A model generated the notes under the pieces. It made no database searches, was not told the DNA's origin, and worked only from the letters and a program-made list of their open reading frames with translations. Below are positions 21,192-32,023 of a stretch of DNA of 64,000 nt, one piece after another. How positions within the stretch are numbered: the stretch's first letter is position 1; every line of letters begins with the position of its first letter. The position numbers and the translations under genes were made by a program. Source of the DNA: Silvimonas terrae (GTDB lineage Bacteria > Pseudomonadota > Gammaproteobacteria > Burkholderiales > Chitinibacteraceae); the NCBI RefSeq assembly GCF_014202765.1, contig NZ_JACHHN010000007.1, positions 195,953 through 259,952 on the forward strand, given 5' to 3'.

Positions 21192-21533
21192 AGCCGCCAG
21201 GCGGGAATCCGGGGGGCACTGGGGACAGGTTCTTGCGCGCATCGCTACCCCGGATTCTCGCAACGCTCCATCCGGGCTACTACCCTGGCAAACCACGAGC
21301 CCGGGGTCCCCACTCCTCGACTCTACCGCACTTCCACCAGATCCAGCGCCCAGCGACGTAGCCCGGATGGAGCCGCCAGGCGGGAATCCGGGGTGGCACT
21401 GGTGGCAGGTTCTTGCGCGCATCGCTACCCCGGATTCTCGCTGCGCTACATCCGGGCTACTACCCTGGCAAACCACGAGCCCAGGGTCCCCACTCCTCGC
21501 CTCTACCGCACTTCCACCAGATCCAGCGCCCAG
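21192..21533. repeat. Tandem ~162-bp duplication carrying a copied gene terminus
   Basis: Copy A (21192-21353) and copy B (21371-21533) match almost base for base with a shift of 179-180 bases. Each begins with a CCGCCAGGCGGGAATCC palindrome, contains a TAGCCCGGAT-type inverted repeat, and ends with the last codons of the GGDEF/EAL gene. Copy B supplies the real C-terminus (WALDLVEVR and stop). Copy A holds a dead duplicate of it at 21321-21353. Confidence 0.85.
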
Positions 21534-26590: not shown

Positions 26591-26661
26591 ACGGCGGGTC
26601 CGGACAGGCTTGATGAACGATTGACCCACAATTCCACAATTCATACCGGCTTGTCGACAGC

Positions 26662-26670
26662 TTATCCACA
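26662..26670 (+). promoter_or_regulatory. Consensus DnaA box upstream of the S9 peptidase
   Basis: TTATCCACA matches the DnaA box exactly. Nearby GCCCACA (26677-26683), CCCACAA (26625-26631) and TTCCACAA (26632-26639) add partial matches. The cluster sits in the 105-base gap before the peptidase gene. Its role is unproven. Confidence 0.45.
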
Positions 26671-26695
26671 GACTTGCCCACACGCCGGCATGCGT

Positions 26696-27688
26696 TCAGC
26701 CCAGATCAACCCACTGACCCGGTGTCGCCATCGCCCGCACGATGGGCAGCATGTCGCGCCAGCCAGCGGCAAAGCTGCTGGCAACCGGCTTGCCACCACG
26801 GATGGCGCGGGCAAAGGCACGCAACTCGCTGGCGTAGCCGTCATCGTCGTCGCGGCGCCATTCGCGGGTGCGGCCGCCAGCGTCGCTCAGGACTAGTGTG
26901 CGGCCGTCATAAGTGGCGCTGCCTTTTTCTGCCAGCAGCACCAGACGCCATTCGCTGTGCGCCGCGGCCGAGAAATACAGATTGATATTGGCCGTCGCAC
27001 CACTGGCGGTATTCAGGGTGAACGCCGCACCATCGTAACGCCCCAGATGCGGGTTCACCTGGCTGGGGCTGGCCGTTGCCCGGGTAATCTCGCCCAACAG
27101 GTCTCGCACCACGGCCATGTAATGCACGCCCGCATCCAGCACCAGCCCACCGGGGAAGGCGTCAGAAGAACGCCAGCCGCTGGCGATATAGCGGTTGTCT
27201 TCGTGCATCAGCATCATGGCGTTCCAGTTCAGCGCATACGGCCGCCCGGCTTCGCCGGAATCGAGCCAGTTGCGGATACGCTCAAACGCGGCGGCATAAC
27301 GGAAATTTTCGGCCACCATGGTGACGCGATCCGGCCAGGAACGGGCCAGATCCAGCATGGCCAGGGCCTGCTCTGCGGTCGGGGCGAGGGGTTTTTCGAC
27401 CAGAACATGTTTGCCGGCCTTGAGTGCCGCGCGGGTGGCTGCCAGGTTTTCAGTGGCGGGCAGAACGATATCGACGGCTTCAATATCGGGTCTGGCCAAC
27501 AGTTCATCCCACCCGACGTACCAGTCCACGCCGCCAGCCATGGCCGAAAAGTGCTGGGCCTTTTGCGCGGTGCGATTACACACAGCCACCAGTTCGACCT
27601 CTTCGGCCACAGCCTGCAAGGCCGGCCAGTGCAGTTCGCGCGCCGCAACGCCGCAACCAATCAGCCCGAGCTTGACGGGGTGAGTCAT
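26696..27688 (-). CDS. Gfo/Idh/MocA family NAD(P)-dependent oxidoreductase
   Basis: A 330-residue dehydrogenase. The N-terminal Rossmann fold has GLIGCGVAARELHWPAL at residues 8-24, and the family motif VEKPLAPT near residue 96 supplies the catalytic lysine. The C-terminal domain follows around AGVHYMAVVRDLLG near 185. Members act on sugars, inositol or related polyols, and the substrate cannot be told. AGGAAG stands 7 bases before the ATG. Two palindromes in the 240-base upstream gap suggest a dedicated regulator. Confidence 0.88.
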   Translation of the reverse strand: MTHPVKLGLIGCGVAARELHWPALQAVAEEVELVAVCNRTAQKAQHFSAMAGGVDWYVGWDELLARPDIEAVDIVLPATENLAATRAALKAGKHVLVEKPLAPTAEQALAMLDLARSWPDRVTMVAENFRYAAAFERIRNWLDSGEAGRPYALNWNAMMLMHEDNRYIASGWRSSDAFPGGLVLDAGVHYMAVVRDLLGEITRATASPSQVNPHLGRYDGAAFTLNTASGATANINLYFSAAAHSEWRLVLLAEKGSATYDGRTLVLSDAGGRTREWRRDDDDGYASELRAFARAIRGGKPVASSFAAGWRDMLPIVRAMATPGQWVDLG

Positions 27689-28729: not shown

Positions 28730-30004
28730 CTACAACAAACGTGCCAGCAAGGCACCGTTGAGGTGCGCCGGCAGCGGAATGGACACCGCTACGCCATTGC
28801 CCGCCGCCACACTGACAGGCTGGTTCTCCCCATCACGCATGGCGGTCAGTGCCAGCACCTGATTGCCGGACGGGTGGATGATTTCCAGCTGGTCGCCCAC
28901 CGCAAAGCGGTTCTTGACTTCAATCTGCGCCCAGCCATCGGTCACGCTCAGCACCTCGCCCACGTACTGGCTTTGGCGGGACTGGGAGTGGCCATCCAGA
29001 TAATTCTGCGTTTCATGGCTGTGATGGCGCTGCAAAAAGCCGGCGGTATAACCCCGGTTGGCGAGTCCTTCCAGATCGGCCAGCAGTGTCGGATCAAACG
29101 GCCGGCCAGCGACGGCATCATCAATGGCCCGCCGGTACACCTGCGCCGCACGCGCGACGTAATACGCGCTCTTGGTGCGCCCTTCTACCTTGAGCGAATC
29201 CACGCCAATCTCCACCAGCCGCGCCACGTGTTCCACCGCGCGCAGGTCTTTGGAATTCATGATGTAAGTGCCGTGTTCATCTTCCATGATCGGCATCAAT
29301 TCGCCTGGGCGGTTGGCTTCTTCAATCAGGTATTCGGTGTCAGCCGCATCATGGCGCGGCACGCTGCCACAGGCGCTCTCCCCTGCGGCGTGGACTTTGT
29401 AATCCCAGCGGCACGCATTGGTACAGGTGCCCTGGTTGGGGTCACGGTGATTGAAGTAGCCGGACAACAAACAGCGCCCGGAATACGCAATGCACAACGC
29501 GCCATGGACAAAAACTTCCAGTTCCATATCCGGGCATTGCTGGCGAATCTCCGCGATTTCTTCCAGCCCCAGTTCGCGCGAGAGAATCACCCGCGTGAGC
29601 CCCAGCGACTGCCAGAACTTCACCCCGGCATAGTTAACTGTATTGGCCTGCACCGACAGATGAATGGGCATATCCGGCCAGGCTTCCCGCACCAGCATGA
29701 TCAGACCGGGATCTGCCATGATCAGCGCGTCGGGTTTCATGGCGATCACCGGGGCCATATCGGCCACAAAGGTTTTCACCTTGGCGTTGTGCGGCAAGAC
29801 ATTGGCCGCCACAAATAACTGTTTGCCGCGCGCGTGGGCCTCTTCAATCCCGGTTGCCAGTTGTTCCAGCCGGAAATCATTGTTGCGCGCACGCAGGCTG
29901 TAACGCGGCAGACCGGCGTAGACCGCGTCCGCGCCAAAATCATAGGCAGTTCGTAATTTGGCGAGATTACCGGCAGGCAACAACAGTTCTGGCGCGCGAC
30001 GCAT
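28730..30004 (-). CDS. trhP: tRNA uridine-34 hydroxylase TrhP (YegQ, U32 family)
   Basis: A 424-residue U32-family protein. It tracks E. coli YegQ along its length, with shared blocks AGNLAKLRTAYDFGADAVYAG, HLSVQAN, VILSRELGLEEI, FVHGALCIAYSGRCLLSGY, DPNQGTCTNACRW and EDEHGTYIMNSKDLRA. In E. coli, TrhP works with prephenate and an iron-sulfur cluster to hydroxylate U34 of certain tRNAs, the step before cmo5U or mcmo5U. The conserved cysteines in GRCLLSGY and TCTNACRW fit cluster binding. The start at 30004 agrees with homologues. An upstream TTG (30028) adds eight residues and is less likely. Confidence 0.93.
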   Translation of the reverse strand: MRRAPELLLPAGNLAKLRTAYDFGADAVYAGLPRYSLRARNNDFRLEQLATGIEEAHARGKQLFVAANVLPHNAKVKTFVADMAPVIAMKPDALIMADPGLIMLVREAWPDMPIHLSVQANTVNYAGVKFWQSLGLTRVILSRELGLEEIAEIRQQCPDMELEVFVHGALCIAYSGRCLLSGYFNHRDPNQGTCTNACRWDYKVHAAGESACGSVPRHDAADTEYLIEEANRPGELMPIMEDEHGTYIMNSKDLRAVEHVARLVEIGVDSLKVEGRTKSAYYVARAAQVYRRAIDDAVAGRPFDPTLLADLEGLANRGYTAGFLQRHHSHETQNYLDGHSQSRQSQYVGEVLSVTDGWAQIEVKNRFAVGDQLEIIHPSGNQVLALTAMRDGENQPVSVAAGNGVAVSIPLPAHLNGALLARLL

Positions 30005-30064: not shown

Positions 30065-30766
30065 TGCCTCTCTTTTAAGCAGGTGGTAAAAATGCCGCTA
30101 AAACAGTTGTTTGCCCCATCTGTCCACAGCACGTACACATGTTTGTTCCGGGTTTTGCGTGGACAACCCACTCTTTTCCACAAAGGGTGTGACCGACCTG
30201 CCAATGCCCTTATGAACCCTGGCAGATTGCCCAAAAAACGGGCGCACTCCACAAATGTCTGGGCGGACAAGGACTTGCCCCACTTGTCCACAGGGCATGC
30301 ACAGTCTTGTGCCCGCATCTTGTGTAAAACCCGTTGGGATTGCCTCTTTTTCAGGCAGTGCCAAAAAGCCGTTTAGCGTCAACGGCCTGCCCCGCTTGTC
30401 CACAGACCACCAACATGGTTGTTCCGCAAAAACCGTGGAAAACCATACGCAGCCTGGTTTTGCGAGGTGCCTCGCAGCAAAGGGCAGCCGGATTTATCCC
30501 CAGGTTTTGCTGAAAACACCCTGCAAAACGCCCTTTGCCTGTTTTTTGATCAGTGCTTAAAAAGCGTTATGACTCAGCACCCTGAAGCCCTTATCCACAG
30601 CCTCTGCACAGTTCAGCCCGGACAAAGCGGGGATAATCCCCAGCCGTATCGGGCTGCAACGCTGCCCATTTTGCAGGCAGCGGCCAGAAAGCCTTGCAAA
30701 TCAAGGTGATGAGGCGCTTACCCACATGGCGTACACAAGCTTGTCCAGCCCGCGCGTGGATAACCG
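30065..30766. repeat. Array of five degenerate 104-bp structured repeats with paired DnaA-box-like sites
   Basis: The gene-free stretch 30005-30868 holds five direct repeats at 30065-30168, 30228-30331, 30341-30444, 30536-30639 and 30663-30765, separated by 59, 9, 91 and 23 bases. The left half of a unit begins TGCC, a T-rich loop, then AGGCAG and AAAAAGCC in most copies. The right half starts 55-56 bases later with a 9-mer like TTGTCCACA or TTATCCACA and ends about 48 bases on with its inverse (GTGGACAA, GTGGATAA, GGGGATAA). Between them is a shorter palindrome such as ACAAGCTTGT. Unit 1 pairs GTCC with GGAC, whereas unit 4 pairs ATCC with GGAT, a compensating change. Unit 2 is the most diverged in its left half. 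Confidence 0.85.
30591..30599 (+). promoter_or_regulatory. Consensus DnaA box in repeat unit 4
   Basis: TTATCCACA is an exact match. Related sites in the array are TTGTCCACA (30284, 30396), TTACCCACA (30718), TTTTCCACA (30174) and, on the minus strand, TTTTACACA (30321-30329) and TTATCCACG (30755-30763). Confidence 0.5.
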
Positions 30767-30868: not shown

Positions 30869-31666
30869 ATGAAGATCGGATTTATCGGCACCGGCAACAT
30901 GTCTGGCGCCATGATCGCCGGTATTAAACACACCCACCCGGATTGGCAAATCCACGGCTACAACCGCAGCCACGAAAAACTGATTGCCCTGCAAAACAAA
31001 TGGGATGTGGTGCCTTCTGATTCTCTGGCCGAAATCGCCGCCCTGGCAGACTTTCTGGTGGTTGGGGTCAAACCGCAGGGTTATGACGCCATGCTGGCCC
31101 AGTTACGCCCGCTGCTGCAGCCACGGCACGTGATTGTGACCGTCGCCGTGGGATACCCGATCGAGCGCGTACAGCGCCACGCCGGCGAACACACCAAGGT
31201 GGTACGCAGCATGCCCAACACGCCCGCCCAGATTGGCCAGGGCATGAGCGCACTGTGTGCCTCTACCCAGGTATCGGTTGATGAGCGCGCGGCGGCGCAA
31301 AACATCTTTGAGAGCTTTGGTCGTGCCGTATTTATTGAGGAGAGCCAGTTTGACGTGTTCTCTGCCGTGGCGGGCTCTTTGCCGGCGTATGTCTGCGTGA
31401 TTATCGAAGCGCTGGCAGACGCCGCCGTGCAGCACGGCATGCCCCGGCAGCAGGCTTATGGTGTGATCAGCCAGGCAGTCATGGGGTCGGCGCAACTGGT
31501 GCGCGATGGCAATCGGCATCCGGCCGAGTTGAAGGATCAGGTGTGCTCGCCGGGTGGCACGACGATTGCCGCCATTGCGGCGCTGGAAGCGGGTGGCTTG
31601 CGCAGTACCTTGATTGAGGCGGTGAGCGCCTGTATGGCGCGGACGAAGGTGTTGGCGGGGAAATGA
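30869..31666 (+). CDS. proC: Pyrroline-5-carboxylate reductase
   Basis: A 265-residue NAD(P)H-dependent enzyme that performs the last step of proline synthesis, reducing pyrroline-5-carboxylate. The Rossmann motif GFIGTGNMSGAMIAGI is at residues 4-19, and the C-terminal family signature appears as KDQVCSPGGTTIAAIAAL near residue 225. The ATG at 30869 starts directly at the conserved N-terminus, with GAGG about 10 bases upstream. An upstream in-frame extension to 30767 runs into the repeat array and is rejected. Confidence 0.95.
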   Translation: MKIGFIGTGNMSGAMIAGIKHTHPDWQIHGYNRSHEKLIALQNKWDVVPSDSLAEIAALADFLVVGVKPQGYDAMLAQLRPLLQPRHVIVTVAVGYPIERVQRHAGEHTKVVRSMPNTPAQIGQGMSALCASTQVSVDERAAAQNIFESFGRAVFIEESQFDVFSAVAGSLPAYVCVIIEALADAAVQHGMPRQQAYGVISQAVMGSAQLVRDGNRHPAELKDQVCSPGGTTIAAIAALEAGGLRSTLIEAVSACMARTKVLAGK

Positions 31667-31721: not shown

Positions 31722-32023
31722 GTCGTAGGGTGGATTCGGAGCGGAGCGACAATCCACCTTCATTGCCGTAAAACCCGAAACTCTGTTAGCGCCTTGCGGC
31801 GCGGGTTTGAAAGGCATTTGATACCCGCGGTGGCCGGAGCACGTTACTTTCTTTGCTTCGCCAAAGAAAGCAGTCGTAGGGTGGATTCGGAGCGGAGCGA
31901 CAATCCGCCTTCATTGCCGTAAAACCCGAAACTCTGTTAGCGCCTTGCGGCGCGGGTTTGAAAGGCATTTGATACCCGCGGTGGCGGGAACACCCTACTT
32001 TCTTTGCCTCGCCAAAGAAAGTA
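31722..32023. repeat. Tandem 151-bp direct repeat
   Basis: Copies 31722-31872 and 31873-32023 are nearly identical. Each begins GTCGTAGGGTGGATTCGGAG, contains the inverted GGTGGATT / AATCCACC pair and ends in CGCCAAAGAAAG. A third, more diverged copy starts at 43239. Confidence 0.9.

What the first reader, a model, noticed from the sequence alone, without database searches (positions are those of the whole stretch)
30065..30766. Five 104-bp structured repeats with inverted DnaA-box-like pairs between trhP and proC
Seen directly: five direct repeats of almost constant length (103-104 bp) with variable spacers (59, 9, 91, 23 bp) in an 860-bp gene-free gap. In every unit the TGCC start lies 55-56 bases before a TTrTCCACA-like 9-mer, and the inverse 9-mer comes about 40 bases later, with a smaller palindrome at the centre. 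The outer arms change together (GTCC/GGAC in unit 1, ATCC/GGAT in unit 4), which suggests that pairing is kept. Established: the E. coli datA locus holds a cluster of DnaA boxes and limits DnaA-ATP. Inference: this could be a DnaA-titrating or DnaA-ATP-lowering site, a family of structured RNAs or attenuators, or a REP-like mobile element. I know of no described element with this layout.
Basis: partly seen in the sequence, partly recalled or inferred. Interest (0 to 1): 0.8.

Follow-up and report, generated by a model that had tools for sequence, protein, structure and literature searches.

The report
Tandem DARS-like DnaA-recharging DNA array
Between two ordinary genes, a Silvimonas bacterium carries five repeats of a non-coding DNA module laid out like E. 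coli's DARS sites, predicted to bind DnaA, IHF and Fis and likely to recharge DnaA, the protein that starts chromosome copying; all 43 genomes searched in its family have matching modules.

Summary
The repeats are real. Each ~104-bp unit reads not as an RNA but as an ordered set of protein-binding sites: a Fis-type 15-mer, an IHF-type site with an upstream A-tract, a DnaA box, then three more DnaA-box positions spaced (12 and 26 bp, the last inverted) like boxes III, II and I of E. coli DARS1 and DARS2. Read backwards, the order core, IHF, Fis is that of E. coli DARS2. A profile of the units matches 43 of 43 genomes of the family (at least 37 with two or more listed matches within 1 kb) and 86 of 300 sampled genomes of the order, beside different genes in other families, and 0.14-0.49 of the genome from dnaA in 21 placements. 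The same genome also has two single E. coli-like DARS cores elsewhere. Tests for RNA structure, arm covariation and a dispersed repeat were negative. Best reading: a tandem array of DARS-like modules likely to regenerate ATP-DnaA. Main doubts: box II is degenerate, no activity was tested, and a datA-like role is not excluded. My paper searches found no description of such arrays; the founding DARS paper was not available.

The parts
30065..30168 (+). Unit 1: Fis-type 15-mer 30066-30080; IHF-type 13-mer 30101-30113; DnaA box 1 30120-30128; box III position 30131-30139; box II position 30143-30151; inverse box I 30158-30166
30228..30331 (+). Unit 2: Fis-type 30229-30243; IHF-type 30265-30277; box 1 30284-30292; III 30295-30303; II 30307-30315; inverse I 30321-30329
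30341..30444 (+). Unit 3: Fis-type 30342-30356; IHF-type 30377-30389 (CTG in place of TTR); box 1 30396-30404; III 30407-30415; II 30419-30427; inverse I 30434-30442
30536..30639 (+). Unit 4: Fis-type 30537-30551; IHF-type 30572-30584 (CTG in place of TTR); box 1 30591-30599 (TTATCCACA); III 30602-30610; II 30614-30622; inverse I 30628-30636
30663..30766 (+). Unit 5: Fis-type 30664-30678; IHF-type 30699-30711 (ATG in place of TTR); box 1 30718-30726; III 30729-30737; II 30741-30749; inverse I 30755-30763
28730..30004 (-). trhP (yegQ-like) coding sequence, left neighbour; the array lies upstream of it
30869..31666 (+). proC-like coding sequence, right neighbour

Best explanation
The stretch is a tandem array of five DARS-like modules, each a three-position DnaA-box core with E. 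coli DARS spacing preceded by a DnaA box, an IHF-type site and a Fis-type site, predicted to bind DnaA, IHF and Fis and likely to release ADP from spent DnaA so that it can reload ATP and start the next round of replication. Inferred mechanism: IHF and Fis bend the left half of the unit; DnaA loads cooperatively on box 1 and box III (2 bp apart, head to tail) and box II (3 bp further on); the head-to-head contact between DnaA on II and on the inverted box I loosens ADP, as described for E. coli DARS1/2. Repeating the module would raise capacity or sharpen the dependence on DnaA, IHF and Fis levels. Shown here: the sites, their order, spacing, conservation and distribution. Not shown: any binding or activity.
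For: Geometry: on 87 units from outside the family, likeness to the DnaA box (TT[A/G]TCCACA, mean matches of 9) over columns 66-94 is highest at 68 direct (5.82), 80 direct (5.43) and 94 inverse (6.62), i.e. +12 and +26; the next highest are 4.47 (69 inverse) and 4.45 (93 direct). E. coli DARS1 and the DARS2 core have the same offsets with 24 and 22 of 27 matches. R1, built without E. coli sequence, lands gaplessly on the DARS1 core as its best match in three E. coli loci (8.7 bits); the wider profile R2 ranks DARS1 second, a DARS2-region site third and the DARS2 core fourth of 27 matches in 75.6 kb, against 4.5 bits at best in a 50-kb control. IHF: by weight C-16 100%, A-15 96%, R-14 97%, T-8 100%, R-7 100%, with an A-tract at -32 to -29; outside the family 71 of 87 units have CAR-N4-TTR. 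Fis: four key positions met in 32 of 33 and 83 of 87 units. Order core-IHF-Fis as in DARS2. IHF-alpha (71% identity in the own genome) and Fis (51%) homologues in 8 of 8 genomes examined. E. coli DnaA prefers box pairs 2 or 3 bp apart (PMC11317965). Distribution: 43 of 43 family genomes. Position: 21 placements in 20 genomes of 1-3 contigs at 0.14-0.49 of the genome from dnaA, median 0.29; E. coli DARS2 0.21, DARS1 0.33, datA 0.10.
Against: Box II positions of the window units read TTGTTCCGG, TTGTGCCCG, TTGTTCCGC, CAGCCCGGA, TTGTCCAGC: the CACA half is lost, so binding there is doubtful. The E. coli cores show no box at the position of box 1 (read). The genome already has two single DARS-like cores with a perfect box II, so the array may do something else. 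The strict IHF rule CAR-N4-TTR is met in 2 of 5 window units and 21 of 33 units; the strict Fis string GNNYANNNNNTRNNC in 32 of 87. E. coli scores are weak (E 0.016 to 0.42); R2's best E. coli match is upstream of dnaA, not a DARS, and 5.8 bits fall in asnA. Out-of-family units were chosen by the profile itself. 214 of 300 genomes of the order had no match at E<=1e-4, under the stricter filters used for large searches. About 7 in 10 random loci would also lie beyond 0.14 from dnaA.
Confidence: 0.52

Rival explanations
1. The array lowers free or active DnaA: a datA-like site (IHF-dependent ATP hydrolysis on DnaA) or a plain DnaA sink built from DARS parts.
For: Many DnaA boxes plus IHF-type sites in a gene-free stretch; the genome already has two single DARS-like cores; strong box 1 and weak box II differ from DARS; datA also has a box pair 3 bp apart.
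Against: In datA the IHF site lies so that bending brings box 2 and box 3 together (PMC10380432); here it lies to one side of all boxes of a unit. R2 matches datA only at separate single boxes. Arrays lie 0.14-0.49 of the genome from dnaA, while a sink should be copied soon after initiation. Exact spacing of weak boxes is not needed for a sink.
Confidence: 0.27
2. The sites are a DnaA/IHF/Fis-controlled regulatory region of trhP or of the neighbouring gene.
For: Within the family the array is next to trhP in several genera, and DnaA acts as a transcription factor in E. coli (PMC11317965).
Against: Of 18 loci looked at (of 38 held, 1.5-kb flanks), 13 (3 of the family, 10 of six other families) have no TrhP as the longest flanking reading frame (judged by eye). 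The gene on the other side is not ProC-like in two Iodobacter-genus loci. Five 104-bp copies over 700 bp exceed a promoter's needs.
Confidence: 0.09
3. A family of structured RNAs or attenuators.
For: Local inverted repeats in single units, e.g. TGCC/GGCA.
Against: RNAalifold predicts no pair on 33 units; no arm covariation; folding z-scores -1.67 to +0.83; the only Rfam match in the window is a tRNA elsewhere. The TGCC/GGCA palindrome is explained by the Fis-type 15-mer.
Confidence: 0.02
4. The chromosomal origin itself.
For: DnaA boxes and IHF sites are origin parts.
Against: Sampled GC skew in the closed Silvimonas-genus genome G003 turns at about 2.1-2.3 Mb, at dnaA (2.33 Mb); the array is at 1.005 Mb. 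In G034 (Iodobacter genus) it turns between 2.8 and 3.0 Mb, dnaA 2.77 Mb, array 2.15 Mb. In G013 it turns between 2.7 and 2.9 Mb with dnaA at position 1220 and the array at 1.04 Mb.
Confidence: 0.03

Closest known systems
DARS2 of E. coli (between rppH and mutH)
   Same: Three-box core at +12/+26; order core, IHF, Fis; largely intergenic; far from oriC.
   Different: Here the whole set is packed into 104 bp and repeated; an extra DnaA box sits 2 bp before box III; box II is degenerate; E. coli DARS2 is single, 455 bp, with two IHF sites 3 bp apart.
DARS1 of E. coli (between bioD and uvrB)
   Same: Best E. coli match of R1, gapless over III-II-I.
   Different: DARS1 needs no protein factors such as IHF or Fis (PMC4585315); perfect box II; single.
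datA of E. coli
   Same: DnaA boxes plus IHF, DnaA-control locus; a box pair 3 bp apart.
   Different: IHF placed to join boxes 2 and 3; near oriC (0.10 of the genome); no good inverted box I at DARS spacing (19 of 27 for the three boxes).
Two single DARS-like cores in the same genome (L297; L295)
   Same: Same core spacing, with Fis- and IHF-type sites nearby.
   Different: Perfect box II TTATCCACA, single copy, no box 1; the Fis- and IHF-type sites stand in the order core, Fis, IHF (read). Neighbours recognised from recall as hemE/priA and xseA.

Membership tests
DARS (DnaA-reactivating sequence) | Core of three DnaA boxes, III and II direct, I inverted (I and II head to head), at fixed spacing | tested here: met
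   Highest box likeness at +0, +12 and +26 inverse; E. coli DARS1/2 the same. Of 127 units in which box 1 was located (174 rows given), the inverse box starts at +37 from box 1 in 94, +38 in 26, +36 in 3.
DARS (DnaA-reactivating sequence) | All three core boxes able to bind DnaA | tested here: inconclusive
   Box II is degenerate (mean 5.43 of 9; CACA half mostly lost); binding not tested.
DARS (DnaA-reactivating sequence) | Promotes ADP release from DnaA | not testable with these tools
   Needs biochemistry.
DARS2 type | IHF and Fis sites in the order core-IHF-Fis | tested here: met
   By sequence only; strict IHF rule in 21 of 33 and 71 of 87 units, strict Fis string in 32 of 87.
datA | IHF site placed between essential DnaA boxes | tested here: not met
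   The IHF-type site lies before all DnaA boxes of the unit; datA feature from PMC10380432 and recall. IHF sites of a following unit do lie between boxes of neighbouring units, but at variable distance.
datA | Close to oriC | tested here: not met
   0.14-0.49 of the genome from dnaA in 21 placements; datA 0.10. Not measured in the window's own genome, which is in 15 contigs.
oriC | At the GC-skew turning point | tested here: not met
   G003, G034 and G013 sampled.
Structured RNA | Conserved pairing with covariation | tested here: not met
REP-like mobile repeat | Copies scattered over the genome | tested here: not met
   Own genome: five strong matches, all in this array; next best 18.9 bits.

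The most novel reading that the evidence does not exclude
A third, previously undescribed kind of DnaA-control locus: a multi-copy, IHF- and Fis-dressed DARS-derived array that works beside two ordinary DARS sites in the same chromosome, as an amplifier or as a DARS turned into the DnaA-lowering counterpart of datA, kept throughout a bacterial family of the beta lineage.
Probability: 0.4. Interest if true: 0.85.

Novelty: new variant of a known kind. Interest (0 to 1): 0.74.

Why it matters
DnaA-ATP control outside E. coli and its kin is poorly known (recall); the 2014 DARS2 paper states that Fis and the DARS2 core are confined to gammaproteobacteria related to E. coli (PMC4245941), while a review says that DARS-like sequences are conserved in many proteobacteria (PMC10380432). 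If right, this is an IHF/Fis-type DARS module in the beta lineage, in tandem, with natural differences in unit number at the same trhP locus: one seen in Andreprevotia, two in Iodobacter, four in Amantichitinum, five in Silvimonas (other loci of those genomes may hold more). That is a ready-made series for testing how module number sets initiation timing. The profile also finds near-full-length modules, mostly single, in other orders of the class.

Tried and rejected
RNA reading: Rfam (one tRNA only), RNAalifold, single folds, arm concordance: rejected. Origin reading: GC skew sampling: rejected. BLASTN for further copies in the own genome and in 60 relatives: syntenic arrays in three Silvimonas-genus genomes and pieces in five genomes of a second genus (Iodobacter); most other listed hits have E > 0.01 and I take them as chance. 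DnaA-box counting in 1200 bp upstream of trhP in 80 named loci: 6 boxes in Silvimonas amylolytica, 9 in Amantichitinum, 3 in Malikia (L116, not followed up), 2 in Iodobacter, at most 1 in the other 76; it misses diverged units (one in Andreprevotia seen by eye), so the profile replaced it. Genome G031 of the Iodobacter genus was left out of the 33 units because my anchors did not fit it. Papers: Fujimitsu 2009 and the 2019 paper on DnaA-DnaA contacts at DARS1 are not held, so which DARS homologues they list is not checked. Papers seen as passages only: PMC4585315, PMC10380432, PMC10950094, PMC4245941, PMC11317965, PMC12371093; all others as search listings. Searches.

Full report
WHAT IS THERE. 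The window lies on contig C7 of a 4.83-Mb genome in 15 contigs of the same genus as G001, whose contig length is that of the Silvimonas amylolytica record. Only the claimed co-variation of the outer arms fails.

THE UNIT IS A PROTEIN-SITE MODULE. I collected 33 units from this gap in four Silvimonas-genus genomes (five each), Amantichitinum (four), four genomes of the Iodobacter genus (two each) and Andreprevotia (one). They align in 111 columns for 109 bases. Taking the first base of box 1 as 0, the conserved columns are: G, Y, R, C at the four key places of a Fis 15-mer around -54 to -40 (32 of 33 units); an A-tract at -32 to -29; C-16, A-15, R-14 and T-8, R-7 of the IHF consensus WATCAR-N4-TTR; box 1 TTRTCCACA; a box ending in CACA at +11; TTGT-C at +23; and an inverse box GTGGAWAA at +37 or +38. 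Consensus strings for IHF and Fis are those quoted in PMC4585315 (I allowed R for its last A in WATCAA); that the A-tract sits as in IHF site H' of phage lambda is recalled, not tested.

SELECTION. Between this genome and two other Silvimonas-genus genomes the motif columns are 525/590 identical (89%), other unit positions 265/450 (59%), spacers 357/690 (52%). Orthologous units are 66% identical between species (n=30) against 47% for non-orthologous ones (n=120) and 48% for paralogues within a species (n=40), so the array is older than these species and is not homogenised. The motif columns were defined on the same units, so the 89% is somewhat flattered.

DARS GEOMETRY. It matched 86 of 300 genomes drawn from the order at E<=1e-4 (52 of 134 genera). 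Ten of the 86 are of the family; of the other 76, 36 have three or more matches, in several cases head to tail within 2 kb (e.g. G189, G225, G229, G288). On 87 units outside the family (22 loci), DnaA-box likeness between columns 66 and 94 is highest at 68 and 80 direct and 94 inverse (5.82, 5.43, 6.62 of 9; next 4.47 and 4.45). These offsets, 12 and 26, are those of boxes III, II and I in E. coli DARS1 and in the DARS2 core, although no E. coli sequence went into the profiles. R1's best match in three E. coli loci is the DARS1 core, gapless (8.7 bits, E 0.016). The wider profile R2 in 75.6 kb of E. coli ranked the dnaA upstream region first (10.0 bits), DARS1 second (9.1), a DARS2-region site third (7.9) and the DARS2 core fourth (6.5); then 5.8 bits in asnA, 5.6 in the DARS2 region, 4.9 at datA and at the edge of oriC, and at most 4.5 in a 50-kb control stretch. 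The order core-IHF-Fis follows E. coli DARS2, where IBS1-2, 3 bp apart, lie between core and the Fis sites FBS2-3 (PMC4245941); two IHF-like strings 3 bp apart at L180 1729 and 1745, which I take to be IBS1-2, fit this.

THE PARTNERS EXIST. E. coli IHF-alpha finds a 71% and Fis a 51% identical homologue in the window's genome, and homologues in 8 of 8 genomes examined. E. coli DnaA prefers pairs of boxes 2 or 3 bp apart (PMC11317965), the spacing of box 1-III and III-II here.

TWO ORDINARY DARS CORES IN THE SAME GENOME. The best weak matches of R2 elsewhere in the genome turned out to be single cores with a perfect box II (TTATCCACA) and the same spacing: at C1:667962 between frames that I recognise as hemE and priA, and at C3:380990 beside one that I recognise as xseA (names from recall). 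A pattern drawn from these two, up to 2 mismatches, occurs in 65 of 81 genomes (own included); the reversed control pattern in 0 of 81. All four Silvimonas-genus genomes have two perfect matches. So the array is a third site of this kind, not the genome's only DARS, which leaves room for a special role.

PLACE. In the family the array is often beside trhP (four Silvimonas-genus genomes, Amantichitinum, four Iodobacter-genus genomes; and L163, L171, L173, L174, L177), but 13 of the 18 loci that I looked at (of 38 held), 10 of them in six other families, have no TrhP as the longest flanking frame (by eye, 1.5-kb flanks). In 21 placements from 20 genomes of one to three contigs it lies 0.14-0.49 of the genome from dnaA (median 0.29, from positions; some genome sizes rounded). 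Six of the 26 genomes (G042, G254, G085, G169, G326, G316) are not among the 20, because one search listed no position I could use; further matches in G026, G034, G133, G242 and G255 were left out; and G009 (four contigs, array 0.13 away) is not counted. Some placements rest on one or two matches (e.g. G239, the second in G242). Sampled GC skew puts the origin at dnaA in G003 and near it in G034; in G013 the turn is some 0.7-0.9 Mb from dnaA; in none is the array at the turn.

HOW FAR IT SPREADS. In 369 genomes drawn from the class, R2 matched 40 at E<=0.001; 38 of these are outside the order, mostly with one match, and 22 of the 38 have a match spanning at least positions 9-97 of the 103. By the E-values under one genome would be expected by chance, but calibration is rough. 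Compact single modules thus seem older than the arrays (inference).

WHAT IT MOST LIKELY DOES. By analogy with DARS1/DARS2 (head-to-head I/II contact, PMC10380432; IHF and Fis dependence of DARS2, PMC4245941) I infer ADP release from DnaA on an IHF- and Fis-bent module. Steps shown: sites, spacing, order, conservation. Steps inferred: binding, ADP release, benefit of tandem copies. The degenerate box II is the weakest point; it may make the module work only when DnaA loads cooperatively from box 1 and III, or it may mean that the unit no longer recharges DnaA. The datA-like or sink reading keeps 0.27. I therefore call it DARS-like and do not file it as a proven DARS.

NOVELTY. New variant of a known kind. 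Nine paper searches (seen as listings, six papers as passages) gave no description of tandem DARS arrays or of DARS with IHF and Fis sites in these bacteria, in a library that lacks the founding DARS paper.

Noticed in passing
window 26652-26680: Three DnaA-like boxes head to tail, TTGTCGACA-GC-TTATCCACA-GAC-TTGCCCACA (spacers 2 and 3 bp), just past the 3' end of the minus-strand frame 26696-27688; R1 gives 15.2 bits. Possibly another DnaA site.
   Followed up: partly
L297 1560-1594 (G000:C1:667962) and L295 1487-1521 (G000:C3:380990): Two single DARS-like cores with perfect box II in the window's genome, beside frames recognised as hemE/priA and xseA.
   Followed up: partly
window 30869-31666: The proC-like gene has a second, 33% identical homologue in the same genome (C4:205284); most relatives have only one at 32-38% identity to this query, so this looks like an extra proC paralogue of Silvimonas and Amantichitinum.
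   Followed up: no
L180 1952-1986 (E. coli, near DARS2): A second site with DARS geometry (20 of 27) about 0.3 kb from the E. coli DARS2 core; PMC11317965 lists a DnaA peak and a double box there.
   Followed up: no
G013 (L206-L225): Sampled GC skew turns between 2.7 and 2.9 Mb although dnaA is at position 1220 of the 3.56-Mb record: origin and dnaA may be apart, or there was an inversion.
   Followed up: no
L196 and L194: In some out-of-family units (f20, f21) the better DnaA box stands at the III position and box 1 is weak.
   Followed up: no
L116 (Malikia granosa), 446-658 bp upstream of trhP: Three DnaA-like boxes upstream of trhP in a distant betaproteobacterium.
   Followed up: no
window 21192-21533 and 31722-32021: Two-copy tandem repeats of 180 and 151 bp, 95% alike.
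   Followed up: no
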